From Paremcibacter congregatus (lineage in GTDB: Bacteria > Pseudomonadota > Alphaproteobacteria > Sphingomonadales > Emcibacteraceae), in the NCBI RefSeq assembly GCF_006385135.1, contig NZ_CP041025.1, positions 1,829,501-1,893,500 of the forward strand: a DNA stretch of 64,000 nt, given 5' to 3'. The translations under genes were made by a program, and so were the position numbers. The notes beneath the pieces are model-generated. The model did no database searches, was not told the DNA's origin, and saw only the letters and a list, made by a program, of their open reading frames with translations. Position 1 is the stretch's first letter. The number at the start of each line of letters is the position of its first letter. Positions 7,857 to 19,420 of the stretch are shown here, in pieces.

Positions 7857-7979
7857 ACAAATATCGTAAATCTTATAACGAGCGGCCGGGGTACTGTTTG
7901 TGATCACGTGCCAAGCCGTTGTTACTCAGGCATCCTTTATCATGTTGCATGATGTCGTTTATATCCATCCCATCCAATA

Positions 7980-8007
7980 ATTTACCATAATATAAATTGT
8001 GTCGTCA
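7980..8007 (+). other. attL: dif-like Xer site, left junction of prophage 1
   Basis: The left arm ATTTACCATAA and centre TATAAA match the XerD half of dif (reverse complement of E. coli dif, recalled from memory: arm ATTTAACATAA, centre TATACA). The right arm TTGTGTCGTCA is degenerate against the XerC arm TTATGCGCACC. Reading: the left arm is host DNA and the right arm belongs to phage 1. The stop codon of the prophage 1 repressor (TAA, minus strand, 7982-7984) falls in the host-derived arm. Confidence 0.8.
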
Positions 8008-8386
8008 CTTGCGCTCCGTTTTTCTCACCAGCAAAGGCCGATCCTGAGCCGTCAAAATCGATGCTACCAAGGGACAGGTTACAGCCTAAAATTACACCCG
8101 CCGCATATTGTGGGAGCGATTTTAATAGTTTCTTAAATATCGGGACAGCTTCCGGAGTTTTAAATTCTGCTTCCCATAAATCTCTATGCAACAAGGCCAT
8201 ATCAGCGGGGACGTTTGCAAGGCTTGCAAGCTTTATCATTGCCGCTACGGAGGGTACGTCTGGACGATCTGGGTGCCTCCATTTTGCAACGTTTGCCATA
8301 TGCAGGCGTGTTGCAAGCTGTCTATCTGACTTCAATCCGTGAAGCTCTTTAGCTCGGTTCATATACCAATTTATATCTTGTTTCAT
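7982..8386 (-). CDS. Prophage 1 repressor-like regulator (DUF3693-like helix-turn-helix protein)
   Basis: A 134-residue protein with an N-terminal helix-turn-helix (SDRQLATRLHMANVAKWRHP, about residues 20-39) and a following helical domain, resembling DUF3693 regulators of filamentous and other small phages. It is about 45 percent identical by eye to the prophage 2 counterpart at 27811. It diverges from the early operon, the usual place of a lysogeny repressor. Its last codons cross the attachment site: in the excised circle the stop TAA becomes AAA, and the frame runs 25 codons further to a stop at 17816-17818. Repressor function is inferred from position. Confidence 0.75.
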   Translation of the reverse strand: MKQDINWYMNRAKELHGLKSDRQLATRLHMANVAKWRHPDRPDVPSVAAMIKLASLANVPADMALLHRDLWEAEFKTPEAVPIFKKLLKSLPQYAAGVILGCNLSLGSIDFDGSGSAFAGEKNGAQVTTQFILW

Positions 8387-8398
8387 AGCCAGACCTTT

Positions 8399-8414
8399 CT
8401 ACGTATGTACGTAA
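8399..8414. promoter_or_regulatory. TACGTA-type palindromic element ahead of repressor 1
   Basis: The 16-base sequence CTACGTATGTACGTAA lies 12 bases upstream of the repressor start codon. The same 16 bases precede the otherwise different repressor of prophage 2 (27781-27796, opposite strand). Longer versions of the motif recur at the early/late boundary of both phages. It is a candidate regulator-binding site. Confidence 0.5.
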
Positions 8415-8430
8415 TATCAAGAACACAGAG

Positions 8431-8497
8431 TATCAGCTTACTGATAACTGACAAGAAGCAATATTATCTTGACACCCTTAATGTAATGTGAATAAGG
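8431..8497 (+). promoter_or_regulatory. Prophage 1 early promoter with adjacent candidate operator
   Basis: The -35 box TTGACA (8469-8474), a 17-base spacer and ATAAGG as -10 (8492-8497) precede the early operon. Upstream of it, TATCAG and CTGATA (8431-8446) form a 6-base inverted repeat with a 4-base loop, a possible repressor site. This block shares nothing with the equivalent block of prophage 2 although the genes downstream are nearly identical. Confidence 0.55.
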
Positions 8498-8555
8498 TGC
8501 ATCCTGCTAACTGCTGAGAAGCATTTTGGTAAATTTGCACTTATATTCCTCCCTT

Positions 8556-8583
8556 GGGGCCTCTGTCCGGCCGGACATGCCCC
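8556..8583 (+). promoter_or_regulatory. GC-rich hairpin in early leader, conserved in both prophages
   Basis: A perfect 14-base palindrome TGTCCGGCCGGACA (8564-8577) is enclosed by GGGGC (8556-8560) and GCCCC (8579-8583). It lies about 30 bases before the first early gene. The same structure occurs at 27633-27660 in prophage 2. It could be an RNA leader structure, an attenuator, or a DNA structure used in replication or packaging. No run of T follows directly, so it is not a typical terminator. Confidence 0.5.
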
Positions 8584-8615
8584 GCACTTTTAGGGAGACA
8601 ACAAAAGGGAAGATC

Positions 8616-8816
8616 ATGGCTAAAGTAAAATTCTCCATAGACTTTGAATTTGATGAAGAGGAAAAAACATTTCATGTTTTTATTCCTTCTGCACCCGAAG
8701 GGATTTCTTGGAATGAGGAAGATATTCATGAAGCTTGTTCCAAGGCAATGACTGATTTTCCAGATGCACAGGATTGGGAGTTTTCGCTGTTTATTGATTT
8801 GGGAGATGAAGCATGA
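8616..8816 (+). CDS. Prophage 1 early protein, acidic, 66 residues
   Basis: A small acidic protein (MAKVKFSIDFEFDEEEKTF...), rich in Asp and Glu, with alternating strand-like residues. The start is ATG 8616 preceded by AAGGGAAG; an in-frame ATG upstream at 8526 lies before the leader hairpin and is less likely. It is the first gene of the early operon and identical in prophage 2. I do not recognise the family. Its acidity could suit a DNA-mimic or a protein-binding role, but nothing proves this. Confidence 0.75.
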   Translation: MAKVKFSIDFEFDEEEKTFHVFIPSAPEGISWNEEDIHEACSKAMTDFPDAQDWEFSLFIDLGDEA

Positions 8817-8962
8817 CCCGGATTTTTTGGATTACTTATGCGGCGTTGATTATTGCGGTTCTGATATTCGTTTCCGGCTGCTCCACCAAATTCAATGAAT
8901 GCCCGGAAATCCCCCAGTATCACGGCTGCTTTTACAAGGATTACCCGGAGTATCTGCCATGA
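8813..8962 (+). CDS. Prophage 1 small lipoprotein, 49 residues
   Basis: It begins with MTRIF, then a hydrophobic segment and a lipobox VSGC (Cys about residue 23), so a small inner- or outer-membrane lipoprotein is predicted. The mature part has further cysteines (NECPEI, HGCFYK). It overlaps both neighbours by ATGA. It is conserved in prophage 2 (27254-27403). It might act in superinfection exclusion or lysis; the early location favours the former, as inference only. Confidence 0.65.
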   Translation: MTRIFWITYAALIIAVLIFVSGCSTKFNECPEIPQYHGCFYKDYPEYLP

Positions 8963-9153
8963 GTAAGAAATACTGGCGGGATACCGTAGTAAAGCTTAAG
9001 GATCGTGACTGCAAAGCTAAAACCCTTACCAAAATAAGAGTGTTGTTAAATTCAGAAGCGGCAAAAACATACGATGGCTCACTTTCTGGCCCGCTTGGAC
9101 ACCCTAATGTTGAGGGCCTCTTTTTGCAGGTGAAGGAGATGGTGACGGAATGA
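8959..9153 (+). CDS. Prophage 1 early hypothetical protein, 64 residues
   Basis: A basic small protein (MSKKYWRDTVVKLKDRDCKA...) starting at ATG 8959, which overlaps the lipoprotein stop. It is almost identical in prophage 2 (27063-27257); one visible change is Gly to Ser near the end. It marks the last shared gene before the replication block diverges. I do not recognise the family. Confidence 0.7.
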   Translation: MSKKYWRDTVVKLKDRDCKAKTLTKIRVLLNSEAAKTYDGSLSGPLGHPNVEGLFLQVKEMVTE

Positions 9154-9485
9154 CCCTTGACCCTACAATTCTCACCTGTAATGAAAAACTTCTAAGACGC
9201 GCCGCCCGGCGTGATGTTCGCTTTGACAATCAGCTTGTGGTCTGGGCGAAAATTAAACACCTCTGGGAAATGTATGATTTCAGCATAGGCCAATGGCCCG
9301 CATATCTCGAAGCCAGCTATTTTTACGGCTGCATGTTGATGCGGGAAGGGGTGCAGGACGTACGTATAGGATTATTCCCTCACGCCGACAAAATCCCCCA
9401 GTCGCCACCCTTCGACCAGTCACCGGCCTTTCTCATGGGGATCGGTATTTTCCGCCCTTCCTACACACGTACGAAGGGTTTTTAA
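9150..9485 (+). CDS. Prophage 1-specific hypothetical protein, 111 residues
   Basis: A soluble protein of mixed composition starting MTLDPTILTC, coupled to the preceding gene by ATGA. It has no counterpart in prophage 2, where the same junction leads into a different membrane protein (26821-27066). It lies in the replication block ahead of Rep, so a link to replication is possible but unsupported by any motif I can see. Confidence 0.6.
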   Translation: MTLDPTILTCNEKLLRRAARRDVRFDNQLVVWAKIKHLWEMYDFSIGQWPAYLEASYFYGCMLMREGVQDVRIGLFPHADKIPQSPPFDQSPAFLMGIGIFRPSYTRTKGF

Positions 9486-9728
9486 ATGCGCCCAGAACTT
9501 AAACACAGTATTCAACTTGTGCAGGTCGCCATCGGCGAACATCCGCTATTCGACAATATCCCCCGGGATCAACAAATTCTGGCCCTAATCACATTGGCCG
9601 CAGGACTTGCAAGAAGTCATTCCGAAGAACTGCTTGCCAACCAGTCCAAAAATTCACGCATGAAGTGGGCAGACATGACCGTCAGGACTCTTGTCCCTGA
9701 TTTAGGCAACGGGGAGTCCGCGCAATGA
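9486..9728 (+). CDS. Prophage 1-specific hypothetical protein, 80 residues
   Basis: A small, probably helical protein (MRPELKHSIQLVQVAIGEHP...). It begins directly after the previous stop and ends overlapping a tiny membrane ORF. It is absent from prophage 2. I do not recognise the family. Confidence 0.6.
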   Translation: MRPELKHSIQLVQVAIGEHPLFDNIPRDQQILALITLAAGLARSHSEELLANQSKNSRMKWADMTVRTLVPDLGNGESAQ

Positions 9729-9793
9729 CTTTGATCATTCTAGGGGTGTTTCTGACGGTTTTAGGTTTTGCCGGGGTATGGGGGCAAAAATGA
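9725..9793 (+). CDS. Prophage 1 tiny membrane peptide, 22 residues
   Basis: The ORF MTLIILGVFLTVLGFAGVWG plus two residues is nearly all one transmembrane segment. It is coupled by ATGA to the gene before and to Rep after it. The prophage 2 protein at 26821-27066 begins with a similar hydrophobic stretch (MTLTMLILGTLGVILSILGI), which supports this as a real gene. Function unknown. Confidence 0.45.
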   Translation: MTLIILGVFLTVLGFAGVWGQK

Positions 9794-11070
9794 CAAATCC
9801 CTTGAAAGGTACGCAAGTAGAGTTGCCGCCCTTGTTTTTAAAGGATAATTTGGAACAGCTAAACGGCGCTCAAAAAAGGGACCGGCTTCGCACTGTGGCC
9901 GGGCAAATTTTAACCGGGGAACGGGTTTATAAATGCGGTCGCCACCGGATCGGGGCGATTGTCACAATTTCCGCCAGTTCGACCGGCGCTATGTTCAACG
10001 GCGTGGAGACTTGCGGCTCGATCTGGCATTGCCCCGTATGCGCCGAAAAAATTTCCAATAAACGGCGGCTTGAAGTGGCGGCGGCGATTGATGGCACAAA
10101 AGAGCGCCGGGGCGGTGTCTATATGCTGACACTCACAATGAAACATGCGCCATTCGATAAATGCGCCGCCTTGAAGGACGCTGTCGCGATGGCGTGGCGC
10201 AAGCTGCAAAATACGCGTGCCTGGCGCAGTATAAAAGAGGATCGCCAAATTTTCGGCACGATCCGGGCGCTGGAAATCACCCATGGCGCGAATGGGTGGC
10301 ATCCGCATTTACATATCCTGCTTCTGACCGAAAACGAGTTGTCAGAACATGAACAGGAAGAAACCCGTCTTGAGATTTTCGAGCAATGGGACAAAAAGAT
10401 TTATGCTTTAACCGGGCAATATTGCCATGCTGACGCTTGCGATTTACGGCCAACAAATTCCTCTGAATATCTCACCAAAGGTGCGGATCGCAAGGCCGGA
10501 AAAATGAAATGGGGCGCGGATCGCGAGATATCAAAGGCCAATATCAAGCAAGGGAAGGGCGGTAAAACGCCTTTTGAACTGCTGGAAGCGGCCTATTATG
10601 GCAATCGTCAAGCCGCCGCTATGTTCGCAGAGTATGCCGCCGCCTTCAAAGGGGCGCGACATATCACATGGACCCACGGCTTAAAAGATTTCTTTGAGAT
10701 TGCCGAAATTCTTGACGAAAAAATAGCAGAGATTAGCCCGGAAAAAGTCGCCGGACAGGATGAATTGCCATTCAGTGAAGATTTAAATATGCGGATGATC
10801 GTCGCTCTGGATCGCGGCACGTGGGCGGCGGTTTGTCGCCACAATTTACGCCCTGATCTGCTGGACGCAGCCTACAAGCATGGCCGCGCCGGTGTGGTGG
10901 GGCTGCTCGCGAAATATGGCCTTTCGGTCTGGCTGGGCACCGGTCACATTAACGAAGATCAGACGAATGCGCAGTTTTCAAATGACGGAAAAGTAATTTT
11001 CAATCGAGTGACAGCAAGGCCGCCCCGCCTTACGGAAATGCCTCACTCTGCAACACCATGGAAGGATTAA
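9790..11070 (+). CDS. HUH-endonuclease replication initiator Rep (rolling circle), type A
   Basis: This Rep should nick one strand at the replication origin and start rolling-circle replication. A zinc-type cysteine pair occurs in CGSIWHCPVC (residues 75-84), the metal-binding HUH motif in HPHLHILL (His 173 and 175), and the likely catalytic Tyr 227 in EYLTKG; this layout is typical of plasmid Rep proteins of the CxxC/HUH group. I choose ATG 9790 because it overlaps the upstream stop (ATGA); ATG 9778 is possible and gives 430 residues instead of 426. Prophage 2 has a different Rep in the same slot. Confidence 0.85.
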   Translation: MTNPLKGTQVELPPLFLKDNLEQLNGAQKRDRLRTVAGQILTGERVYKCGRHRIGAIVTISASSTGAMFNGVETCGSIWHCPVCAEKISNKRRLEVAAAIDGTKERRGGVYMLTLTMKHAPFDKCAALKDAVAMAWRKLQNTRAWRSIKEDRQIFGTIRALEITHGANGWHPHLHILLLTENELSEHEQEETRLEIFEQWDKKIYALTGQYCHADACDLRPTNSSEYLTKGADRKAGKMKWGADREISKANIKQGKGGKTPFELLEAAYYGNRQAAAMFAEYAAAFKGARHITWTHGLKDFFEIAEILDEKIAEISPEKVAGQDELPFSEDLNMRMIVALDRGTWAAVCRHNLRPDLLDAAYKHGRAGVVGLLAKYGLSVWLGTGHINEDQTNAQFSNDGKVIFNRVTARPPRLTEMPHSATPWKD

Positions 11071-11071
11071 A

Positions 11072-11374
11072 ATGACTGTCACAAACGAAGTCATCGGCCA
11101 CACCCAATGCCCGGATTGCAAGGCTAAAGTTGAACGCCGGATCAATAAGAACCGAAAAGTCTACTGGCACTGCGATGGTCGGGCCGATGATCCGCAGTGC
11201 AACGCCGCGTTTAAACATGGTGCGGCCATGTCGAGACGCTTGATTGCCGCCGCCGCAAAACCTCAACCCTCAAACGACAACGAACCACAGGAGACTATTG
11301 AACATGAAGAAGACAACACCGCCAGCAAACGACAATCTGGAAATTCAGGACGCGCCGGAATTGGATGTTTCTGA
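11072..11374 (+). CDS. Prophage 1 zinc-ribbon-like protein, 100 residues
   Basis: The N-terminal half has CPDC (residues 13-16) and a later HC...C set, which looks like a small zinc ribbon; the C-terminal tail is low-complexity and polar. The first 80 bases differ synonymously from the prophage 2 copy (24564-24866), then identity resumes, so one edge of the replication-block exchange lies here. It could be a DNA-binding accessory or late regulator. Confidence 0.7.
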   Translation: MTVTNEVIGHTQCPDCKAKVERRINKNRKVYWHCDGRADDPQCNAAFKHGAAMSRRLIAAAAKPQPSNDNEPQETIEHEEDNTASKRQSGNSGRAGIGCF

Positions 11375-11855
11375 GGCTGACATTCTCGAAGAAATAAACT
11401 GGGACAATTCGACAGATCACCTTGACGAGATCACGCCGGAACCCGCCGCCGAGGATATGCCAGAATATGACAAAATATCGGGGCTTGATAAATCCGAGAT
11501 ATTTTCAAAGGAGGAGTTTTTCTCCGATTTTTTCTGTCAGAATCTGGTGCTTGCAGAACATCTCACGGGTTTGGTGGGCGTTTCTGTGGTCGTGTCAGAT
11601 GGTAAACCGGAAACCGGTGCGCGCGAAACGTCTGATTTGCTCTATGAACAGTGCCAGAAATTCCGCTTCCTGCAATGGGCGATTAAACGAGACGCGGCAT
11701 GGGTAACAAATGTTCTTCCCGTCGTGATTTTCGTTAAGGGCAAGGCCGATATCGTCGGAATGCAGCTTACGGCGCGCCGGGAAGCGGCAAAACGGGCGTC
11801 ACAGCAACCACAGGCGGCGAATGACAACAACGCGCCTATGGAAGAGGCCGTATGA
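11304..11855 (+). CDS. Prophage 1 conserved hypothetical protein, 183 residues
   Basis: I start it at ATG 11304, which has AGGAG nine bases upstream; the frame is open from 11244 but that part is overprinted on the zinc-ribbon gene. The N-terminal half is strongly acidic and probably disordered. The C-terminal half is compact and mixed (QWAIKRDAAWVTNVLPVVIF). It overlaps the ATPase by ATGA, so it may act with packaging or membrane assembly. Family not recognised. The copy in prophage 2 (24083-24634) is nearly identical. Confidence 0.7.
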   Translation: MKKTTPPANDNLEIQDAPELDVSEADILEEINWDNSTDHLDEITPEPAAEDMPEYDKISGLDKSEIFSKEEFFSDFFCQNLVLAEHLTGLVGVSVVVSDGKPETGARETSDLLYEQCQKFRFLQWAIKRDAAWVTNVLPVVIFVKGKADIVGMQLTARREAAKRASQQPQAANDNNAPMEEAV

Positions 11856-12511
11856 GCCAGCCGGTTCGGATAGGCATCTATGGCGCGTCAGGGTCGGGCA
11901 AGTCAACACTTGCCCGACACCTGATCAAGTCCGAAAAGCGCCTTGTGGTTTTTGATCCTGCTTTAGACTGGTCAAAGGAATTTTCCAAAAAGCGTGGATG
12001 GGAGGTCTGTCACACCATTGCCGCCGTTCGGGCGGCGCTCAAAAAGAAATGGAAGACCAGCTTTAAAATCATATTTGTGCCTGAAGGCGGTAACGAGATC
12101 GAAGATTTAGACAAGTTGTCTGGTCTGATCCTGCAAGCCCAGGGCATTTATTTTAAGGGCGTCAAAAATCATCCGCAGATTACTTTCGTCGTCGATGAGA
12201 TGAATACTTGTTTCCCCGTTTCTGGATTGAAATCCAATTTTAAACAGTTCGGCAATGTGTGCTCTCGGGGCCGTCACTATGGGATTAATACGTACGGCCT
12301 GACGCAACGCATTGCAGAGGTTCACACCAAATGGCGCGGCAACTGTTCGGCTATGTACATATTGCGGCTGGCCTCTGCGCGGGATCGCGACACGGTGCAG
12401 GGTGAAATCGGGCGGGAATATAAAAACACCATTATGTCATTGCAAAACTTCGACTTTTTGCTGTTTGAACAAGCCAGCGTGGTGCAGGGCAGGGTACCGA
12501 AACCAAAATAA
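11852..12511 (+). CDS. Packaging ATPase, FtsK/HerA-type (PM2 P9-like; also Zot-like)
   Basis: A 219-residue P-loop NTPase with Walker A GASGSGKST (residues 11-19), Walker B TFVVDE (111-116) and a downstream TQR (151-153) as in FtsK/HerA ATPases. Tailless membrane-containing phages use such ATPases to pump DNA into the capsid. Size and place, immediately before the capsid block, match PM2 P9. Zot of filamentous phages belongs to the same broad group, so the fold alone does not decide the phage type. The prophage 2 copy is at 23427-24086. Confidence 0.82.
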   Translation: MSQPVRIGIYGASGSGKSTLARHLIKSEKRLVVFDPALDWSKEFSKKRGWEVCHTIAAVRAALKKKWKTSFKIIFVPEGGNEIEDLDKLSGLILQAQGIYFKGVKNHPQITFVVDEMNTCFPVSGLKSNFKQFGNVCSRGRHYGINTYGLTQRIAEVHTKWRGNCSAMYILRLASARDRDTVQGEIGREYKNTIMSLQNFDFLLFEQASVVQGRVPKPK

Positions 12512-12530
12512 TTTAAAATCGTGAATTTTC

Positions 12531-12557
12531 TTACGTACCTACATGTACGTACGTAGG
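12531..12557. promoter_or_regulatory. TACGTA cluster at early/late boundary, prophage 1
   Basis: Repeated TACGTA units form an imperfect palindrome around CATG, directly after the ATPase gene. The equivalent cluster of prophage 2 lies at 23381-23407. It shares its core with the element ahead of the repressor genes, so one regulator could control both places. Confidence 0.45.
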
Positions 12558-12596
12558 AAATCAGCCATTTGCCACCATCATTAAAATCATGCGTAA

Positions 12597-12629
12597 TAGG
12601 TCTACAGGGTAACTTGTGGACCTATTTTT
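12597..12629 (+). terminator. Intrinsic terminator separating early and late genes, prophage 1
   Basis: TAGGTCTACA and TGTGGACCTA form a 10-base stem (one G-U pair) around the loop GGGTAACT, followed by five T. It ends the replication/packaging operon before the capsid genes, implying a separate late promoter or antitermination. It is conserved in prophage 2. Confidence 0.75.
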
Positions 12630-12737
12630 ATGAAACTGAATATGAACAATTTTTACACGACTGTACTGGCCGGGCTGACGCTTTACGTCATACAAAAGTG
12701 GTTAAGAGAAAGAGAGAAAAATGAACAACCAGATTAA
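12630..12737 (+). CDS. Prophage 1 small membrane protein, 35 residues
   Basis: The ORF encodes one hydrophobic segment (YTTVLAGLTLYVI) followed by a basic-acidic tail. The ATG at 12630 sits on the terminator T-run and has no visible ribosome site; ATG 12642 is an alternative. It is conserved in prophage 2 and overlaps the next small gene. It may be a minor membrane protein of the virion, or not translated at all. Confidence 0.4.
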   Translation: MKLNMNNFYTTVLAGLTLYVIQKWLREREKNEQPD

Positions 12738-12843
12738 GGGCGTCCTGTTTACTGTCGCCGCTATCATTGCTGCCGGGGTTCTCCTGCAATATGGCAAAGA
12801 CATGCCGATCATCAAAGATGCGCACCAAGGTTTTGGCGGCTAA
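12721..12843 (+). CDS. Prophage 1 small membrane protein, 40 residues
   Basis: It starts at ATG 12721 with a purine-rich ribosome site (AGAGAAAGAGAG). The hydrophobic stretch VLFTVAAIIAAGVLLQY is followed by a charged tail ending in GFGG. It lies directly before the capsid gene, and a small integral protein of the virion inner membrane is the likely role, as in PM2. The prophage 2 copy is at 23095-23217. Confidence 0.65.
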   Translation: MNNQIKGVLFTVAAIIAAGVLLQYGKDMPIIKDAHQGFGG

Positions 12844-12869
12844 TTTTAACGTGAAGAGAAAGGGTTAAT

Positions 12870-13715
12870 ATGCCCCAAGCTATTCGAATTGTCGAACCGG
12901 TCATGAATTCCTTCAGCGGCGTTGTCTCTGGTGGTCGTGCGGTTTTGGACGTTGATGTAATCGGCACCTACTACGGCAACATTTTGCATCATTCTTTCGG
13001 CGCGGTTCCGGTCCCCGCCACCAAGGCCAATTATATCACCAATGTGAAAAAAGTTGAAGTTTATCTAGGTGGAACGGTTCAAATGGAACTAACGCCCACC
13101 GAGATTATTTCAATGAATGAAGAAAAAGGCATCCCATGGAAAGACGGCATTTTGCCGCTGTTTTTCGCACAGCCGGACAGCCTGACGGCTATCGGCGAGG
13201 ACGGGACCAGCTGGGGCATGGCGGATATCAACAATTTCCAGATTGTTGTAACCTTTAATGCCGTGGTTAGCCCTTTGTTGTCGGCGTCTCGTATCTGGAG
13301 AAATGCCAACATCACCAACGGTGAAATCATCACAACGGACCGTGTCACGGTCAACTGTGCCGGTCTGGCTAAAAAAGTGGTCAATATCGAGTTTGAACTG
13401 GGGCGCGTGTTCAATGCGATTTACGCCTTCAGTGATAAAATTCTCGGTGTGAAGGCCTATGTTGGACAGGAGAAAATCTGTGACGCGTCAAAGGACACGC
13501 TTGATTTCCTCCGTGAAACCGCGGGCTATGCGCCTCAGTCTGATATCTTCGTCATGTCCGGTAAGCAGTTGACCGCGCGTTACACAGACGTGATCAATGG
13601 CCGAAATCCGATTGACCCCAACAAACCCCATAAACTGCGTCTCGAGTTTGAGTATGACGCCGGGGTGGTGGATCACGACTTGATCATTGAGCAGGTCGGT
13701 ATCAGAAAGGCTTAA
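12870..13715 (+). CDS. Major capsid protein, probable double jelly-roll (PM2 P2-like)
   Basis: A 281-residue, beta-rich protein without membrane segments, strongly translated from AGAAAGGG. Comparing from memory with PM2 P2 (269 residues), I see the same order of blocks: N-terminal GNS/GGR strand, NVKKVEVYLGG, GILPLFFAQPD, a FQIVVTFNA strand, PLLSASR, and in the second half GVKAYVGQEK, a TLDFLRETAGY helix and a C-terminal LRLEFEYDAG strand. This supports two jelly rolls but was not computed. The prophage 2 copy (22205-23050) has the same length with a few substitutions. Confidence 0.72.
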   Translation: MPQAIRIVEPVMNSFSGVVSGGRAVLDVDVIGTYYGNILHHSFGAVPVPATKANYITNVKKVEVYLGGTVQMELTPTEIISMNEEKGIPWKDGILPLFFAQPDSLTAIGEDGTSWGMADINNFQIVVTFNAVVSPLLSASRIWRNANITNGEIITTDRVTVNCAGLAKKVVNIEFELGRVFNAIYAFSDKILGVKAYVGQEKICDASKDTLDFLRETAGYAPQSDIFVMSGKQLTARYTDVINGRNPIDPNKPHKLRLEFEYDAGVVDHDLIIEQVGIRKA

Positions 13716-13717
13716 TC

Positions 13718-14002
13718 ATGGCTGAAGAAGCAAGCGTTGAAAGCTATAGCGCCGGGGGTTTTTTTGGTGATCTGGTAAATGCTGCGGGAAACCTTGGCAG
13801 CAAATACCTAGACTTCAAATGGTCATCTAATCAACTGGATGAAGAGCGGCGACTGGCGGCACAGTATAACGCCGCTGTCACCAATCAGGCAATCGCGGAC
13901 ACACCACGGCCTGAAAGTCAAAATTCTGATCTGGTGAAATATGGCCTGTTTGCCTTTGCCGGGTTTGCGGCTCTCTTGATCATGGTAAAGGCAATCAAAT
14001 AA
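13718..14002 (+). CDS. Prophage 1 virion membrane protein candidate, 94 residues
   Basis: It has an N-terminal GGFFGDLVNAAGNLGSKYLDFK segment that looks amphipathic, a polar middle, and a C-terminal transmembrane segment (GLFAFAGFAALLIMV). It starts 2 bases after the capsid stop and its stop overlaps the next start. A structural role in the inner membrane is inferred from position. The prophage 2 copy is at 21918-22202. Confidence 0.65.
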   Translation: MAEEASVESYSAGGFFGDLVNAAGNLGSKYLDFKWSSNQLDEERRLAAQYNAAVTNQAIADTPRPESQNSDLVKYGLFAFAGFAALLIMVKAIK

Positions 14003-14196
14003 TGGTTGCCTCTTTACCACCTCTAAACGTTGCGGGCGGCACTGCGGGGCCGTCCGAGGCGCGGGGGCATAATAGCTTTTCATTCAACACGGGTGCTTTC
14101 GGAACTGAGCCAGCAAGCAATAAACTTATTGGCCTCATTCTTCCAGTTGGCGCTCTGGCGGCGGCGGGTTTTATCATATGGCGGCTATTGAAATAA
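14002..14196 (+). CDS. Prophage 1 virion membrane protein candidate, 64 residues
   Basis: A polar Gly/Ser/Asn-rich N-terminal half is followed by one transmembrane segment near the C-terminus (LIGLILPVGALAAAGFIIW). The N-terminal half varies between the two prophages (ASLPPLNVAGG against APIPKLSVSGG) while the remainder is constant. Function unknown; probably structural. Confidence 0.62.
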   Translation: MVASLPPLNVAGGTAGPSEARGHNSFSFNTGAFGTEPASNKLIGLILPVGALAAAGFIIWRLLK

Positions 14197-14594
14197 AAAA
14201 TATCGGTGCCCTGGACGAGCGGGCAAAATCTGATTTTAAGGATTTCTCCCATAACGGCACAGCCAGCTTTTATCGCCGTGAAGTCGTGGCTGGGCGCTTA
14301 TCTGTTTTTTCAGTTCTGATCGACGGCTTGCGGGTCGGCTCACTGGCTTTAAGGCGCGAGGTTCAACCACATGGCTCTGAGATGGTAATTGTGGCTGGTG
14401 GCGGCTCTTATACCGGTCAACGGCTGGTTCCTTTGATGCTTGAATTTCTGGAGGGCTTGGCGGGGCGGAACGGGGAACAGTCTGTACGTTTCCACACAAA
14501 GCGTGAACCGCTGGCGCTGGTTGCACAGGGGCGCGGTTACATTGAAATTGATGACGGCGATCCCGACGAAATCACCATGAGGAAGGTCTTGTAA
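14178..14594 (+). CDS. Prophage 1 GNAT-like protein, 138 residues
   Basis: A mixed alpha/beta protein whose order of strands and helices, with the SLALRREVQPHGSEMVIVAG core and the end LVAQGRGYIEI, resembles GCN5-type acetyltransferases found in some phages. I cannot see a clear acetyl-CoA loop, so activity is uncertain. It overlaps the membrane protein gene by 19 bases and sits among structural genes. The prophage 2 copy at 21326-21742 differs at several N-terminal residues. Confidence 0.55.
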   Translation: MAAIEIKNIGALDERAKSDFKDFSHNGTASFYRREVVAGRLSVFSVLIDGLRVGSLALRREVQPHGSEMVIVAGGGSYTGQRLVPLMLEFLEGLAGRNGEQSVRFHTKREPLALVAQGRGYIEIDDGDPDEITMRKVL

Positions 14595-14596
14595 TA

Positions 14597-15064
14597 ATGG
14601 GCGGTAAATCATCCAGCCGTAACAGCACAACGTCCGGTCAATATGACAACCGTGTCATCAATGAAAATGATTATGAGATTGACAACTCAGTCCGGAATGA
14701 GTTCGACTATGAAATTGACAACTCAGTCCGGAATGAGTTCGACTATGAAATTGATAACTCAGTCCGTAATGACATCGACTATGAAATTGATAGCTCAACC
14801 CGGAATGATCTGGGGGATGGTGCCATTCAGGCGGGCGGAAATGTCTCGGTGACTTCTGTTGATGCGGGCGTCGTTGAGGATGCTTTTAACTTTGCAGAAA
14901 ATATCGCTGGGGAAAGTATCTCCGCCTCAAGCTCGGCCTTGTCTCAGGCGTTCAATTCCACGGCGGGCGGTGTCATTGATGCGGGGAAAGACCTCCTGAA
15001 ATATGGCGGCATTGGCTTGGCCGCACTGCTTTTAATCATGACTTATATAAACAGGAACAAATAA
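14597..15064 (+). CDS. Prophage 1 repeat-containing membrane-anchored protein, 155 residues
   Basis: After a polar N-terminus come four tandem 12-residue repeats of the type FDYEIDNSVRNE, then a Val/Ala/Ser-rich region and a C-terminal transmembrane segment (GIGLAALLLIMTYI) with a basic tail. The repeat section should form a regular rod or beta structure projecting from a membrane. Prophage 2 has five repeats, so copy number varies. It is placed between structural genes and a spike candidate, suggesting a stalk or pentameric vertex protein. Confidence 0.65.
   Translation: MGGKSSSRNSTTSGQYDNRVINENDYEIDNSVRNEFDYEIDNSVRNEFDYEIDNSVRNDIDYEIDSSTRNDLGDGAIQAGGNVSVTSVDAGVVEDAFNFAENIAGESISASSSALSQAFNSTAGGVIDAGKDLLKYGGIGLAALLLIMTYINRNK
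14667..14810 (+). repeat. Four tandem 36-base coding repeats (12 codons each)
   Basis: The units encode xDYEIDNSVRNx with growing divergence toward the 3' end (the last unit reads IDYEIDSSTRND). They lie in frame in the gene at 14597-15064. Confidence 0.85.
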
Positions 15065-15065
15065 A

Positions 15066-15707
15066 ATGTTACATGAAGGCACACTACAGCCGGGCGAGTG
15101 GCGAACAATTGGTGCCGGGGCTCACAGCCAGATTTTTATAATGGAATGTGACCTCGAATATATTGAGGTGAAGTTTAAAAATTTATCTAAATTCCGCATG
15201 TACCGGGGCGTCCCCGCGAAATATAATTTTGATAATGTTGATATTTCAAATCCTCATTCCACGCCTATTGACTATAAGATATACACCGCCCCGGCTGGAA
15301 TGGAGTTTCAAGAAGGTAGGAGTATCGAAACAGGCACTTCAATTATCGGAACAGTTGGAACAGTTGGGCGTCCGTTATCTGATGAGGGGGGGAGTGTTGC
15401 GTCGATTGGATCTGTAAATTTAGAGTTAGAGCGGACAGGCGTGTATACGGAGGTCGTCGTTTCTAAAGCTGCAAATACAAATGGTATCTTTTTAAGAACC
15501 GCACTCATTCAACAGTCTGTCTCTGGAAATATCAATATTTTGTCAGACCGCGCCGCTGGTGGATCAACAATTTTATTGTTATCCCAGCTCGCAGGCGATG
15601 CGTTGCGGCTCAGTCGTGAAATTTTTATCCCCTCGGGCAATGGTCTTACTCTTTATTTCGGGGGGGGCGCAACCGCGTATATTAACGTGTCATATGATGT
15701 TCTATAG
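15066..15707 (+). CDS. Prophage 1 spike/receptor-binding candidate, 213 residues
   Basis: A soluble, beta-rich protein without signal or membrane segment, with Gly/Ser/Thr-rich strands throughout (TGTSIIGTVGTVGRP, FGGGATAYINVSYDVL). Its place after the repeat protein and before lysis genes fits a vertex or receptor-binding protein. It is identical to the prophage 2 copy apart from one visible residue (A to V near residue 18). No family recognised. Confidence 0.5.
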   Translation: MLHEGTLQPGEWRTIGAGAHSQIFIMECDLEYIEVKFKNLSKFRMYRGVPAKYNFDNVDISNPHSTPIDYKIYTAPAGMEFQEGRSIETGTSIIGTVGTVGRPLSDEGGSVASIGSVNLELERTGVYTEVVVSKAANTNGIFLRTALIQQSVSGNINILSDRAAGGSTILLLSQLAGDALRLSREIFIPSGNGLTLYFGGGATAYINVSYDVL

Positions 15708-16161
15708 CGTCAAAAATATTTTACTCATAGCCGTTGTCGGCGCAGGCGTTGGAAGGTATTTCTATATGAAAAACACGATTGATCTTATGGCCCGGACCAT
15801 GTGGGGCGAGGGGCGCAACCAAGGAAAAGCCGGAATGCTTGCCATTGGCAACGTGATTAAAAACCGGGCGGATCGGGGCGGCTGGTTTGGTCGGTCGGTG
15901 GTCGATGTGATCACCAAGGATATGCAATTTTCAGCTTGGAATATTGGCGACCCGAACCGGGCTAAAATGATGGCCGTGACGGATAAAGACCCACAGTTTG
16001 CGGAAGCTTTGCGATTGGCCAATCAGATCATGACGGGGAAGGTCGCCGATAACACGGGCGGCGCGGATCATTATCACACGGCGGCAATTTTGCCATATTG
16101 GGCGAGTGACATGCCCAAAACCGCCATTGTCGGCGATCACATTTTTTACAGGAGTGCATAA
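15697..16161 (+). CDS. Cell-wall hydrolase, SleB-like (Hydrolase_2), membrane-anchored
   Basis: A phage lysin or entry enzyme that cleaves peptidoglycan. The hydrophobic N-terminal segment ILLIAVVGAGVGRYF is a signal anchor. The catalytic domain begins at MARTMWGEGRNQGKAGMLA, where the Glu of GEGRN is the expected active residue, with the NVIKNRA motif following. ATG 15697 (or 15694) overlaps the preceding stop; a start at 15766 would remove the anchor. The gene opens the lysis cassette. Confidence 0.82.
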   Translation: MFYSVKNILLIAVVGAGVGRYFYMKNTIDLMARTMWGEGRNQGKAGMLAIGNVIKNRADRGGWFGRSVVDVITKDMQFSAWNIGDPNRAKMMAVTDKDPQFAEALRLANQIMTGKVADNTGGADHYHTAAILPYWASDMPKTAIVGDHIFYRSA

Positions 16162-16162
16162 T

Positions 16163-16333
16163 ATGCCTTTATTGTTGGTTGGTGGCATTGCGTCACTTTT
16201 GGGCTTTGGCGGCGGCTGGTTCGCGGCTGACGGGACGAAATCACTCATTCGGGTGGTCATGGTCGGCGGTGTGGCCTATTGGCTGCTAGCGACACCTTCC
16301 GGCAAGTCTATGCTGAAGAAGGTAACCGGCTAA
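16163..16333 (+). CDS. Prophage 1 lysis-cassette membrane protein, 56 residues
   Basis: It has two hydrophobic stretches (LLLVGGIASLLGFGGGWF and VVMVGGVAYWLLA) and a basic C-terminus. It is preceded by AGGAG. It lies between hydrolase and holin genes, so a role in lysis or in the virion membrane is likely. It is identical in prophage 2. Confidence 0.62.
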   Translation: MPLLLVGGIASLLGFGGGWFAADGTKSLIRVVMVGGVAYWLLATPSGKSMLKKVTG

Positions 16334-16467
16334 TGGATCAAATGCTATTATCAATTCTGTCAGGTGGAGCTGACTTTGCGACATACGGAATTTTATTCCT
16401 GTTCTGGCGCACAGATAAGCGGCTGACCGCCTTGGAGCACCACACAAGGATACACAAGGCATGTTAG
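16333..16467 (+). CDS. Prophage 1 small membrane protein, 44 residues
   Basis: One transmembrane segment (FATYGILFLFW) is followed by a charged tail (RTDKRLTALEHHTRIHKAC). The start overlaps the previous stop and the end overlaps the holin start. It could be a spanin-like or antiholin component; no motif confirms either. Confidence 0.58.
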   Translation: MDQMLLSILSGGADFATYGILFLFWRTDKRLTALEHHTRIHKAC

Positions 16468-16835
16468 GGCTTGATAAAATTCTCGGTGGTATTTTCGGCG
16501 TCATTGACAAGGTGGTACCAGACAAAGACCTTGCACAGAAAATCAAGTTCGATGTCCAGTCTCAGGCGCATTCTGGCGAGATGAAAGAGCTTGACGCCGC
16601 CATGAAAATCATCGTCGCGGAAGCCCAGGGCGGCGCATGGCTGCAACGCTCATGGCGTCCCTTGACGATGTTAACCTTCACCGGCCTGATTGTCGCTAAG
16701 TGGCTTGGCATGACGGCTCCGGGGATCACAGAGCAAATTGAACTTGAACTTTTCGCAATCATTAAAATTGGCCTTGGTGGGTATGTCTTTGGACGTTCCG
16801 CCGAAAAGGTCGCAACCGCATGGAAGGCAAAATAA
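16461..16835 (+). CDS. Holin of the 3TM/GTA holin type
   Basis: A 124-residue protein with a charged helical N-terminal part (VVPDKDLAQKIKFDVQ), the WLQRSWRPLTML motif and two hydrophobic segments (LTFTGLIVAKWLGM; LFAIIKIGLGGYVFGRSAEK). This pattern matches 3TM holins of gene transfer agents and small phages. It should form lesions that let the hydrolase reach the cell wall. The prophage 2 copy differs at two visible residues. Confidence 0.8.
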   Translation: MLGLDKILGGIFGVIDKVVPDKDLAQKIKFDVQSQAHSGEMKELDAAMKIIVAEAQGGAWLQRSWRPLTMLTFTGLIVAKWLGMTAPGITEQIELELFAIIKIGLGGYVFGRSAEKVATAWKAK

Positions 16836-16961
16836 ATGGCACGACTGAGACGACAGAAATTTATTCGAGAAGAGAAACAGGAAGCCGCCAAGACTGTCCG
16901 CAAACGTGGCGCTGATGGCAAGTTTATCAAAGAAGAGGAGAATACCGATGTACAAGCCTAA
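16836..16961 (+). CDS. Prophage 1 small basic protein, 41 residues
   Basis: A highly charged peptide (MARLRRQKFIREEKQEAAK...), starting directly after the holin stop and overlapping the next gene. No hydrophobic segment is present. It is identical in prophage 2 apart from possible single changes. It may bind DNA or be a minor virion component; unknown family. Confidence 0.5.
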   Translation: MARLRRQKFIREEKQEAAKTVRKRGADGKFIKEEENTDVQA

Positions 16962-17259
16962 ATCATGGCCCCACGCCCTTATTGCCGCCGTTGTGATGGC
17001 GATTTTCTATTACATCGTGCCGCCCTTGCCGGTGGTCATTTATGCGGCTTTGCTGCCGGTGGTCTACTATTATGGCCGCGAGGTCCGGGACGCTGAAATG
17101 GGCTTGGGGATCACCAGCCTAAGCTTTATTGCGCCGCTTTTGCCGTGGAAGTGGAAAGACCCGGATAATCGCTGGGATTTATACGCGCCGGTGATCACCG
17201 TCCTTGTGTTCGGTTTTTATCTGACATACTGGAAAATTGGGTTAATTTACGCGCAATAA
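16948..17259 (+). CDS. Prophage 1 multi-spanning membrane protein, 103 residues
   Basis: Three to four hydrophobic segments are visible (ALIAAVVMAIFYYIV, VVIYAALLPVVYYYG, LGITSLSFIAPLLPW, APVITVLVFGFYLTYW). I start it at ATG 16948; the frame is open upstream in the basic-protein gene. Small membrane proteins of this type accompany holins in many prophages. It is the last late gene before the terminator. Confidence 0.62.
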   Translation: MYKPKSWPHALIAAVVMAIFYYIVPPLPVVIYAALLPVVYYYGREVRDAEMGLGITSLSFIAPLLPWKWKDPDNRWDLYAPVITVLVFGFYLTYWKIGLIYAQ

Positions 17260-17313
17260 AATAAGGAGATCCTCGCGGATTTTTGTAATTATCTTGCGTA
17301 GGTAAAATTGAAA

Positions 17314-17341
17314 AGGGTGTCCTTTAGGACGCTCTTTTTTT
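17314..17341. terminator. Bidirectional terminator between late genes and regulator, prophage 1
   Basis: The stem AGGGTGTCC pairs with GGACGCTCT (two G-U pairs) around TTTA and is followed by seven T; on the other strand the stem is followed by TTTT. It separates the plus-strand late operon from the minus-strand regulator gene. The equivalent at 18541-18572 has changed bases that keep the pairing. Confidence 0.75.
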
Positions 17342-17798
17342 ATGCTGCGGGGTTCAGGGGGACGTAATAGCCAGAAATGTGCAGTTTCCGAATAACCTGA
17401 TCCCGCCGATCTCCACGCTTCAGCATACCTTTTGCCAATTCAATCTTGCGCCGGGTCACATTATGATCAATCTCTTTTAAAATGGTGAGATCAGTCTGAA
17501 ATTTACGGATATACCGGGCTATGGTTTTGGGGTGATAATCAAGAACAGTTGCGATATGTTCAATACTGTAACCAGCCTGATATCGTGTCATGATAGCGCG
17601 TTGAAGTTTTAATTTTTGGAGCATTAGTTTTTCGGATTTTCGCAAATCTCGTTGCTCCGTCTTTTTTACTTGCACTTCACGTTGTTCGGCATCAACGGCC
17701 AGCCTTTCGACTGACTGCGCAAGGTTATTGATTAGTTTAGTTAACTGACGTAAGTCTCGGGCCGGCAAATGGTTTAATGTATTCAAGAGAGTACGCAT
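17340..17798 (-). CDS. Prophage 1 regulator with two helix-turn-helix segments, 152 residues
   Basis: The N-terminal half is a basic helical/coiled region (KTEQRDLRKSEKLMLQK). A first helix-turn-helix lies at YSIEHIATVLDYHPKTIARY and a second is possible near RRDQVIRKLHISGYYV. It has GGGGGAAAG as ribosome site. In the circular phage it would lie 17 bases downstream of the extended repressor reading frame, forming one leftward operon. Prophage 2 has a diverged protein of similar design at 18054. Role unknown; late or copy control is plausible. Confidence 0.65.
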   Translation of the reverse strand: MRTLLNTLNHLPARDLRQLTKLINNLAQSVERLAVDAEQREVQVKKTEQRDLRKSEKLMLQKLKLQRAIMTRYQAGYSIEHIATVLDYHPKTIARYIRKFQTDLTILKEIDHNVTRRKIELAKGMLKRGDRRDQVIRKLHISGYYVPLNPAA

Positions 17799-17814
17799 AA
17801 CTTTCCCCCATAAA

Positions 17815-17842
17815 ATTATATTGGATAGTATACAGGTGTAAA
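17815..17842 (-). promoter_or_regulatory. Promoter for prophage 1 regulator
   Basis: On the minus strand TTTACA (17837-17842), a 16-base spacer and a consensus TATAAT (17815-17820) precede the gene start at 17798. In the circular phage this promoter lies inside the 3' extension of the repressor gene. Confidence 0.6.
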
Positions 17843-17888
17843 TAAACCATGAATAGCGGAACGTATGCGCGCACCAAGCCCGCTAATA

Positions 17889-17916
17889 ATTTTCCATAAT
17901 ATAAATTATGCGCACT
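17889..17916 (+). other. Central dif-like site between the prophages; likely the active dif
   Basis: The arm ATTTTCCATAA, centre TATAAA and arm TTATGCGCACT match E. coli dif (reverse complement, recalled) at 24 of 28 positions. It is the only one of the three sites with two good arms. It is best read as a hybrid: left arm from phage 1, right arm from phage 2. It would be the site available for chromosome dimer resolution in this double lysogen. Confidence 0.8.
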
Positions 17917-18000
17917 CCGGAACTCTCTATCTCGTTTGTATAAAAGCCTTATTAACTTACTCTCCCCCGGCAAGTTGTTCGGTTTACGTTCTATTTACGG

Positions 18001-18047
18001 TTGATCCCTATGCTCCCCAACACTAAAATAACCTGTGTTTTGGGGAG
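18001..18047 (+). promoter_or_regulatory. Promoter and ribosome-site-masking hairpin for prophage 2 regulator
   Basis: TTGATC (18001-18006), a 17-base spacer and TAAAAT (18024-18029) make a candidate promoter. CTCCCCAA (18013-18020) pairs with TTGGGGAG (18040-18047), extended by CAC/GTG across a two-base bulge. The right arm holds the ribosome site GGGGAG of the TTG start at 18054. RNA starting at the local promoter lacks the left arm, whereas RNA arriving from upstream contains the full hairpin. Confidence 0.55.
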
Positions 18048-18053
18048 TAACAA

Positions 18054-18557
18054 TTGAGTAGAATTGATCCAGATATTCCCGGCCTGCCGTTCAGAAATTT
18101 TGAACATTCAGGCCGGGAACTTTTTTCTCAGGTAAATAAAATTCCACCTGAGGCCGCAAAATCCGTAGCAGAATTATTTGAAAAAATTGCAGGTGAATTA
18201 CATGAAGTTCATCAGACATTTTTACATCAAAAAGCTATAACAGCGGAAAGCAAAAAGAATATATTCAAACTCAAACAATTGCCTGTACAGGTGCAGGAAT
18301 GCCTCAACGTGGGCATGAGTTTTGAAGAAGCCGTATCTCACCTCAAGACCACCACAGGCGCGCCGCAAACAACCATTTATTCATACTGGTTAAGGCATAT
18401 CAAGCAACTCGAAAAAGATGCTTTTCAGGTGCGAGATAGGCAGGTTTGGGAAATGTACAATGAAGGATTGCCAGATCAAGAAATTGCCGATTTGTCGGAG
18501 CTGTCAAAGCGCCAAGTTCAGAGAATTATCCGCGAACATAAAAAAAGAGCGCCCTGA
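18054..18557 (+). CDS. Prophage 2 regulator with two helix-turn-helix segments, 167 residues
   Basis: It starts with TTG 18054 after GGGGAG. A helical N-terminal half is followed by a helix-turn-helix around MSFEEAVSHLKTTTGAPQTT and a second near the end (LPDQEIADLSELSKRQVQRI). Design and position match the prophage 1 regulator at 17340, with little direct identity. In the circular phage it lies 49 bases after the extended repressor frame. Its stop codon lies in the shared terminator. Function unknown. Confidence 0.62.
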   Translation: MSRIDPDIPGLPFRNFEHSGRELFSQVNKIPPEAAKSVAELFEKIAGELHEVHQTFLHQKAITAESKKNIFKLKQLPVQVQECLNVGMSFEEAVSHLKTTTGAPQTTIYSYWLRHIKQLEKDAFQVRDRQVWEMYNEGLPDQEIADLSELSKRQVQRIIREHKKRAP

Positions 18558-18572
18558 AGGACACCCTTTTCA
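18541..18572. terminator. Bidirectional terminator, prophage 2
   Basis: This is the counterpart of 17314-17341, read on the other strand: AGAGCGCCC and the ACACCCT side pair around a short loop with A/T runs on both sides. Two base changes against the prophage 1 copy keep the pairing. Confidence 0.7.
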
Positions 18573-18621
18573 ATTTTACCTACGCAAGATAATTACAAAA
18601 ATCCGCGAGGATCTCCTTATT

Positions 18622-18933
18622 TTATTGCGCGTAAATTAACCCAATTTTCCAGTACGTCAGATAAATGCCGAACACAAGAACGGTGATCACCGGCGCGTAT
18701 AAATCCCACCGATTATCCGGGTCTTTCCACCTCCACGGCAAAAGCGGCGCAATAAAGCTTAGGCTGGTGATCCCTAAGCCCATTTCAGCATCCCGGACCT
18801 CACGGCCATAATAATAGACCACCGGCAGCAAAGCCGCATAAATGACCACCGGCAAGGGCGGCACGATGTAATAGAAAATCGCCATCACAACGGCGGCAAT
18901 AAGGGCGTGGGGCCATGATTTAGGCTTGTACAT
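18622..18933 (-). CDS. Prophage 2 multi-spanning membrane protein, 103 residues
   Basis: Counterpart of 16948-17259, with two visible substitutions (WKWKD to WRWKD, FGFYL to FGIYL). It has three to four hydrophobic segments and is the last gene of the minus-strand late operon, before the terminator. Confidence 0.62.
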   Translation of the reverse strand: MYKPKSWPHALIAAVVMAIFYYIVPPLPVVIYAALLPVVYYYGREVRDAEMGLGITSLSFIAPLLPWRWKDPDNRWDLYAPVITVLVFGIYLTYWKIGLIYAQ

Positions 18934-19045
18934 CGGTATTCTCCTCTTCTTTGATAAACTTGCCATCAGCGCCACGTTTGCGGACAGTCTTGGTGGCTTC
19001 CTGTTTTTCTTCTCGAATAAATTTGTGTCGTCTCAGTCGTGCCAT
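18920..19045 (-). CDS. Prophage 2 small basic protein, 41 residues
   Basis: Counterpart of 16836-16961, with the same start directly after the holin stop and the same overlap with the next gene. It is highly charged, without membrane segment; function unknown. Confidence 0.5.
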   Translation of the reverse strand: MARLRRHKFIREEKQEATKTVRKRGADGKFIKEEENTDVQA

Positions 19046-19420
19046 TTATTTTGCCTTCCATGCGGTTGCGACCTTTTCGGCGGAACGTCCAAAGACATAC
19101 CCACCAAGGCCAATTTTAATGATTGCGAAAAGTTCAAGTTCAATTTGCTCTGTGATCCCCGGAGCCGTCACACCAAGCCACTTAGCGACAATCAGGCCGG
19201 TGAAGGTTAACATTGTCACGGGGCGCCATGAGCGTTGCAGCCATGCGCCGCCCTGGGCTTCCGCGACAATGATTTTCATGGCGGCGTCAAGCTCTTTCAT
19301 CTCGCCAGAATGCGCCTGAGACTGGACATCGAACTTGATTTTCTGTGCAAGGTCTTTGTCTGGTACCACCTTGTCAATGACGCCGAAAATACCACCGAGA
19401 ATTTTATCAAGCCCTAACAT
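19046..19420 (-). CDS. Prophage 2 3TM-type holin
   Basis: Counterpart of 16461-16835: 124 residues with the WLQRSWRPVTML motif and two hydrophobic segments. Visible differences are L to V and M to V around the first membrane segment. It overlaps the upstream small membrane gene by 7 bases. Confidence 0.8.
   Translation of the reverse strand: MLGLDKILGGIFGVIDKVVPDKDLAQKIKFDVQSQAHSGEMKELDAAMKIIVAEAQGGAWLQRSWRPVTMLTFTGLIVAKWLGVTAPGITEQIELELFAIIKIGLGGYVFGRSAEKVATAWKAK

What the first reader, a model, noticed from the sequence alone, without database searches (positions are those of the whole stretch)
7982..8386. attP lies inside the repressor gene of prophage 1: integration shortens the repressor by 25 residues
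In the lysogen the frame stops at 7982-7984 in the host arm (TTATGG then TAA). In the circle the phage arm from 17889-17899 changes TAA to AAA, and the frame runs on for 25 codons to 17816-17818. I traced each codon. Mycobacteriophages such as BPs use the same trick (integration-dependent immunity) with their own integrase.
Basis: partly seen in the sequence, partly recalled or inferred. Interest (0 to 1): 0.9.

Follow-up and report, generated by a model that had tools for sequence, protein, structure and literature searches.

The report
Phage attP inside the repressor gene
Two small membrane-type phages sit at the chromosome's dif site, and each carries its attachment site inside the 3' end of its own repressor gene, so integration by host enzymes swaps the repressor's positively charged phage-coded tail for a random host-coded end; this was known in filamentous phages but not, as far as I could find, in this unrelated kind of phage.

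Summary
Joining the left and middle dif sites restores a 159-codon repressor in prophage 1's 9,909-bp circle; the lysogen frame stops at 134. Prophage 2 has the same design with dif inverted, as do five of eight related alphaproteobacterial elements; the other three have short repressors ending just before dif. "Shortening" is host-specific: in nine congeneric dif sites only two would give 134 residues, the rest random tails. The general event is a tail swap.

Beyond the finding: all seven inferred free-phage tails are cationic (+3 to +6), mostly amphipathic (P = 0.0002 for charge, chosen post hoc); lysogen tails are not. Filamentous phages with the same repressor family (phrog_638) carry similar tails, constrained at protein level. 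In every circle a second gene follows the repressor directly, and integration cuts it off from the repressor promoter. Operators, repressor, attP and that gene were exchanged between the two prophages as one cassette.

Precedent exists: phiRSS0 (156 to 130 residues) and XacF1. BPs is an analogy only: no phage integrase and no ssrA-like tag here. Whether the two forms differ in activity is untested.

The parts
7991..17899 (+). Prophage 1 (9,909 bp), PM2/corticovirus-like, lytic genes on +
   Evidence: bounded by dif-like direct repeats; PM2 P2 capsid match PF18628 and packaging ATPase
17900..28200 (-). Prophage 2 (10,301 bp), same phage type, lytic genes on -, tail to tail with prophage 1
   Evidence: shared genes 92-100% identical to prophage 1
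7978..8004 (-). Repressor-side att of prophage 1: degenerate phage XerC arm (GACGACACAA), central TTTATA, host XerD arm (TTATGGTAAAT, which supplies the stop)
17887..17913 (-). Middle site, complete dif GTGCGCATAA|TTTATA|TTATGGAAAAT, made of prophage 2's XerC arm and prophage 1's XerD arm
28188..28214 (-). Repressor-side att of prophage 2: host XerC arm, central TTTATA, degenerate phage XerD arm (GTTAGGAACTA)
7982..8386 (-). Prophage 1 repressor, lysogen form, 134 aa (HTH, hydrophobic segment, dif-coded end ..QFILW)
   Evidence: phrog_638 E 5.5e-5; HTH region pLDDT about 83-95
17819..17893 (-). Phage-coded tail of repressor 1 in the circle, KIISGLGARIRSAIHGLFTPVYYPI; stop at 17816-17818
17340..17798 (-). 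HTH gene of prophage 1 (152 aa); in the circle it starts 20 nt after the first base of the repressor stop, behind GGGGGAAAG; in the prophage it is about 10 kb from the repressor promoter
   Evidence: (HTH_38 1.3e-7)
27811..28275 (+). Prophage 2 repressor, lysogen form (154 aa from the ATG at 27811; 165 aa from 27778) with host-coded end YCHDHTLVRDKVMLNTSSS
   Evidence: phrog_638 E 2.4e-5
17915..18001 (+). Phage-coded tail of repressor 2 in the circle, LRNSLSRLYKSLINLLSPGKLFGLRSIYG; stop at 18002-18004
18054..18557 (+). HTH gene of prophage 2 (167 aa), downstream of the extended repressor in the circle
8436..8523 (.). Twin 25-bp repeats (8436-8460 and 8499-8523, 63 bp apart) flanking a promoter-like TTGACA between repressor 1 and the lytic genes: candidate operators
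27672..27767 (.). Twin 33-bp repeats (27672-27704 and 27735-27767, also 63 bp apart) of different sequence upstream of repressor 2: candidate operators

Best explanation
These are XerCD-dif-integrating corticovirus-like phages whose attP lies in the last part of the immunity-repressor gene. SHOWN from sequence, with the circle junctions inferred: in the free circle the repressor ends in a short, phage-coded, cationic and mostly amphipathic tail, and is followed at once by an HTH gene in the same direction. Recombination at dif replaces that tail by whatever the host arm encodes (here an immediate stop; in other hosts 10 or more random residues) and moves the HTH gene to the far end of the prophage, away from the repressor promoter. 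INFERRED: this is an integration-dependent switch. The phage-coded tail limits or relocates the repressor (most likely by holding it at the inner membrane together with the hydrophobic segment just upstream, or by exposing it to a protease), so a free genome is under weak or delayed repression. Loss of the tail leaves the body, active with almost any ending, to keep the prophage silent, while the HTH protein is made only from free circles.
For: Junction and frames. Same design in prophage 2, G019, G016, G163, G159, G294, with dif in either orientation and read in different frames, so what is kept is the place of attP, not a dif-coded peptide. Phage tails +3 to +6 (sum +32; null 1.4, s.d. 8.0, P 0.0002; other two frames 6 and 18), lysogen tails -2 to +2. 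Filamentous phages with the same repressor family (XacF1 phrog_638 4.9e-43) have tails of +3 to +8 after a dif-coded stretch, with pN/pS about 0.4-0.6. Lysogen-type endings of that family vary widely: 42 distinct among 54, 0-124 aa. Extended repressor followed 7-52 nt later by another gene in the same direction in all seven circles, mostly HTH proteins. Prophages 1 and 2 are 92-100% identical over long stretches, but differ throughout the contiguous unit operators-repressor-attP-HTH gene. In filamentous phage Cf the homologous region is the primary immunity determinant, and XacF1 lacking most of ORF12 integrates late and unstably (PMC5666396).
Against: No activity, stability or localisation data for either form. 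The charge statistic was chosen after seeing the tails; n = 7, not all independent. The hydrophobic segment is strong in most relatives (17-residue Kyte-Doolittle mean 1.8-2.5) but marginal in prophages 1 and 2 (1.39, 1.20). G163's tail is broken by proline and G016's is hydrophobic more than amphipathic. AlphaFold gives the homologous SHP2 tail a helix only at low confidence (about 50). Three relatives keep dif outside the repressor, so the arrangement is not obligatory.
Confidence: 0.55

Rival explanations
1. Strict BPs-type system: the phage-coded tail is a C-terminal degradation tag, the long form is destroyed by a ClpXP-like protease, and the short prophage form is the stable repressor.
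For: Same topology as BPs, where integration removes 33 C-terminal residues including an ssrA-like tag (PMC4557955). Several tails end in a small residue (HGA, VHA, SPA, QYA).
Against: No tail ends in an ssrA-like AA; prophage 1 ends PVYYPI and prophage 2 LRSIYG. The shared property is cationic and amphipathic, not a fixed terminal motif. Degradation by FtsH or Lon is not excluded.
Confidence: 0.15
2. Opposite polarity: the long form is the complete, more active regulator that acts on free circles or host genes, and the lysogen form is a weakened remnant that is good enough for immunity.
For: The tail is conserved as protein in filamentous phages, as expected if it has a positive function; Yamada proposed that full-length phiRSS0 ORF13 acts on host genes (PMC3816273).
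Against: Lysogeny is stable in XacF1 although ORF12 is cut (PMC5666396), and arbitrary host endings are tolerated.
Confidence: 0.15
3. Neutral placement: attP sits in a dispensable C-terminal tail next to the repressor only because immunity and integration modules travel together; the tail has no function.
For: In G068, G153 and G174 attP lies 18-100 nt downstream of a shorter repressor; the dif-coded residues are not conserved in frame.
Against: Non-random charge and amphipathicity, pN/pS below 1 and recurrence in two unrelated virus groups.
Confidence: 0.12
4. DNA-level constraint: the sequence next to attP is conserved for a recombination accessory site or for the ribosome-binding site and promoter of the HTH gene, and the reading frame is incidental.
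For: The arm on the tail side is always the canonical dif arm and strong ribosome-binding sites follow the tail.
Against: Tails of unrelated phages share protein properties, not DNA sequence; the coding frame is the most cationic in total (32 against 6 and 18).
Confidence: 0.03

Closest known systems
Ralstonia phage phiRSS0 (Inoviridae), ORF13/attP
   Same: XerCD-dif integration, attP at the 3' end of a repressor-like gene; integration makes a new stop and removes 26 residues (156 to 130), almost the same figures as here (159 to 134) (PMC3816273)
   Different: Filamentous ssDNA phage of a betaproteobacterium; the functional effect was a hypothesis there too. Its sequence was not in the collection searched, so homology to the present repressor was not tested
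Xanthomonas phages XacF1, Cf1c, phiXv2, phiLf, Cf2 (Inoviridae), ORF12/cp8
   Same: attP inside a repressor gene of the same PHROG (638); hydrophobic segment, dif-coded stretch, charged tail, next gene immediately downstream; attP annotated in the phiXv2 and Cf2 records, and a XerC/D recombination site in that of phiLf
   Different: Unrelated virion and replication genes; DUF3693 matched in XacF1 but not in the window repressors; next gene is ORF112 instead of an HTH gene
Mycobacteriophage BPs integration-dependent immunity (gp33)
   Same: attP in the repressor ORF; viral form 33 aa longer than prophage form (PMC4557955)
   Different: Own integrase, ssrA-like tag, unrelated tailed phage
Jorvik and NO16 (Vinavirales) dif-integrating phages
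   Same: PM2-like capsid, circular dsDNA, no integrase reported, XerCD-dif integration (PMC10589892, PMC9966536)
   Different: In Jorvik attP is separated from the HTH gene gp1 by non-coding DNA; I found no report of attP inside a repressor gene in this order

Membership tests
Integration-dependent immunity (BPs type) | attP within the repressor ORF, integration changes the C-terminus | tested here: met
Integration-dependent immunity (BPs type) | phage-encoded integrase next to the repressor | tested here: not met
   none of the six XerD-type recombinase matches of the genome lies in the window; the neighbouring HTH gene has no catalytic domain match
Integration-dependent immunity (BPs type) | ssrA-like tag at the end of the viral form | tested here: not met
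   tails end PVYYPI and LRSIYG
Integration-dependent immunity (BPs type) | short form active and stable, long form inactive | not testable with these tools
   needs assays
XerCD-exploiting integrative elements (IMEX) | dif-like attP and insertion at the host dif | tested here: met
XerCD-exploiting integrative elements (IMEX) | host XerC and XerD genes present | tested here: met
   two full-length Xer-type genes at 4,084,278 and 3,565,112 (323 and 225 bits, below the XerD model's curated cut-off of 329.6)
XerCD-exploiting integrative elements (IMEX) | integration catalysed by XerC/XerD | not testable with these tools
   needs xerC/xerD mutants
phrog_638 transcriptional regulators (XacF1 ORF12 and relatives) | profile match | tested here: met
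   5.5e-5 and 2.4e-5 for the two window repressors; 6.4e-8 to 4.9e-43 for seven relatives
DUF3693 (PF12472) | profile match over the cut-off | tested here: not met
   XacF1 matches (4.4e-14), the window repressors do not
Corticovirus-like / Vinavirales | PM2 P2-type double jelly-roll capsid protein | tested here: met
   PF18628 2.1e-7 over cut-off
Corticovirus-like / Vinavirales | FtsK/HerA-type packaging ATPase and circular genome near 10 kb | tested here: met
   phrog_2666 2e-21; circles of 9,909 and 10,301 bp inferred

The most novel reading that the evidence does not exclude
A portable immunity-integration cassette (operators, repressor, attP within its 3' end, downstream regulator) is shared by ssDNA filamentous phages and dsDNA icosahedral membrane phages, and in both the phage arm of attP encodes a cationic amphipathic membrane-seeking tail. 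Host XerCD integration removes the tail and splits the operon at the same time, a two-output recombination switch run entirely by a host enzyme.
Probability: 0.4. Interest if true: 0.8.

Novelty: new variant of a known kind. Interest (0 to 1): 0.62.

Why it matters
It carries the attP-in-repressor arrangement from filamentous phages to an unrelated, abundant and poorly studied group of membrane-containing phages, and gives the open question of what the lost C-terminus does (raised for phiRSS0 in 2013) a concrete, testable answer: the phage arm encodes a conserved kind of tail and the host arm encodes noise. It also explains how two nearly identical phages can share one cell (different repressor and operators) and why they lie tail to tail (opposite attP orientation in the swapped cassette).

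Tried and rejected
IMG/VR scans with repressor 1, the capsid protein and the four-repressor alignment found no relative; a wider alignment was too divergent to scan with; tblastn of capsid and repressor 1 against phage records found nothing, and blastn with another capsid gene gave only chance hits. phiRSS0's own record is not in the collection. GC skew around the site is dominated by prophage gene strand and was not used. Rejected: that the dif-coded peptide itself is conserved (different frames in different phages); that ORF112 downstream marks the free form in the filamentous set (tandem prophages confuse it); an ssrA-like tag; that 'shortening' is the general outcome. Foldseek found no match below E 0.001 for either model; for the filamentous repressor the best hits are XRE-type HTH proteins, for the window repressor nothing usable.

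Full report
WHAT IS THERE. The window is part of a complete 4.19-Mb genome. Between 7991 and 28200 lie two corticovirus-like prophages, tail to tail: PM2 P2-type capsid protein (PF18628), HerA/FtsK-type packaging ATPase and different replication genes. Each is bounded by dif-like sites in the same orientation at 7978-8004, 17887-17913 and 28188-28214. The middle site is the only exact match to the dif query in the genome; each of the seven near-complete genomes of the genus, the own genome included, has exactly one site of this sequence. Two full-length Xer-type recombinase genes lie elsewhere on the chromosome and none of the six XerD-type matches lies in the window.

THE OBSERVATION. Joining core to core, the prophage 1 circle is 9,909 bp. 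The mismatch that decides between TAA and AAA lies in the XerD arm, outside the 6-bp central region in which Xer strand exchange takes place, so the arm assignment follows from the known mechanism; it remains an inference until a circle is sequenced.

THE SECOND PROPHAGE DOES IT TOO. Prophage 2's repressor (27811-28275) also runs through its att site: 19 host-coded residues in the lysogen, 29 phage-coded residues in the circle. Its attP is inverted relative to the gene, which is why the two prophages, whose dif sites must be parallel, lie in opposite directions. The two phages are 92-100% identical over long stretches (8544-9155, 11071-17350) but differ throughout the piece that is contiguous in the circle: operators, repressor (42% identity), attP, HTH gene. 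Both intergenic regions carry twin repeats 63 bp apart, of different sequence. The immunity-integration cassette has therefore been exchanged as a unit, and the two phages are probably heteroimmune (inference).

RELATIVES. A related prophage with 74% capsid identity in G019, and prophages or prophage-like regions with related repressors in G016, G163, G159 and G294, show the same overlap; G294 is split over two contigs whose adjacency I inferred, and a capsid gene was not checked in G163. A repressor of the family in G428 also contains a dif-like stretch, but its second site was not identified. In G068, G153 and G174 the repressor is shorter and stops 18-100 nt before dif. In the elements whose sites could be scored or read, the arm on the repressor side is degenerate and the arm on the tail side is close to canonical, so integration leaves a complete dif at the far end of the prophage (the G159 and G294 repressor-side sites were mis-registered in that table and were read by eye). 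This resembles the one-good-arm attP sites of VGJphi and TLCphi (PMC5357621).

THE TAIL. Free-phage tails of the seven corticoviral elements have net charge +3 to +6 and mostly high helical moment; the sum of charges is +32 against 1.4 (s.d. 8.0) for random windows of the same phages' longest ORFs, P = 0.0002; mean best moment 0.56 against 0.41, P = 0.004. The statistic was chosen after seeing the tails. The other two frames of the same DNA give sums of 6 and 18. Lysogen tails range from -2 to +2. Filamentous phages of Xanthomonas and Stenotrophomonas, whose repressors hit the same PHROG, provide a second group: dif-coded stretch, then tails of +3 to +8 (SHP2 FKLLRGWLARLLPRPLSLLRHGA, Cf2 SKRVRRLLRSFVAALTP...), with pN/pS about 0.4-0.6 in pairwise comparison (few substitutions). 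Among 89 further loci of this family, dif is read in all three frames and lysogen-type endings vary freely, 42 distinct among 54, 0-124 residues. That pattern, a conserved kind of phage ending and arbitrary host endings, is the main argument that the phage tail does something and the lysogen form does not need a particular one.

HOST DEPENDENCE. Placing the prophage 1 repressor in the dif sites of nine congeners gives a 134-residue protein in two (G005, G012), as in this host's own left arm, and 144-212 residues in the other seven; the tenth entry of that table, this genome's middle site, simply returns the 159-residue phage form. So the event is a tail swap, and shortening is one outcome.

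THE OPERON. In all seven circles a gene in the same direction starts 7-52 nt after the first base of the repressor stop, usually behind a strong ribosome-binding site; most encode recognisable helix-turn-helix proteins. After integration this gene lies at the other end of the prophage. Its function is unknown.

STRUCTURE. AlphaFold models show a confident HTH domain in the window repressor and in the SHP2 homologue and low confidence beyond it; the SHP2 tail is drawn as a helix (122-138) at about 50 pLDDT. The circle form of repressor 1 was not submitted because it is not contiguous in the window. Fold searches gave no significant hit; top hits for SHP2 are XRE-type HTH proteins. The hydrophobic segment before dif is strong in most relatives, marginal in the two window repressors, so a membrane role is a hypothesis for them.

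WHAT IS KNOWN. phiRSS0: attP at the 3' end of ORF13, integration removes 26 residues, two hypotheses on function (PMC3816273). XacF1: attP in ORF12; deletion of its 5' part delays and destabilises integration; [quoted passage not shown] The phiXv2 and Cf2 records annotate attP in this gene, and the phiLf record a XerC/D recombination site. BPs: analogous, with its own integrase and an ssrA-like tag (PMC4557955). dif integration of Vinavirales phages is known (PMC10589892, PMC9966536); attP inside the repressor there I did not find reported in the papers searched.

VERDICT. Observation confirmed; interpretation partly supported; new variant of a known kind. The functional difference between the forms is the open point.

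Noticed in passing
8544-9155 and 27061-27672; 11071-17350 and 18530-24867: The two prophages share near-identical early and structural regions but have unrelated replication genes (Rep_1 type, 430 aa, against an unmatched 443-aa protein) besides the swapped immunity cassette.
   Followed up: partly
7978-8004, 17887-17913, 28188-28214: The attP arm beside the repressor body is degenerate and the other canonical in this and related prophages, so integration rebuilds a complete dif at the far end.
   Followed up: partly
14597-15064 and 20817-21326: A gene with 36-nt tandem repeats (DNSVRNEFDYEI units) that differs in repeat number between the two prophages.
   Followed up: no
26458-26802: Prophage 2 carries a DUF736 protein (PF05284, 4.2e-20) that was not seen in prophage 1.
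   Followed up: no
L011:5789-5815: A distant PM2-like capsid contig (G054) of 5.9 kb has a good dif-like site near its end, probably another dif-integrated prophage cut by the assembly.
   Followed up: no
L145, L087, L089 and phrog_34897: In some filamentous prophage arrays or families the repressor frame is fused with the downstream ORF112, apparently through att junctions.
   Followed up: no
17340-17798 and 18054-18557: The HTH genes downstream of attP are of different sequence types in the two prophages but occupy the same operon position; function unknown.
   Followed up: partly
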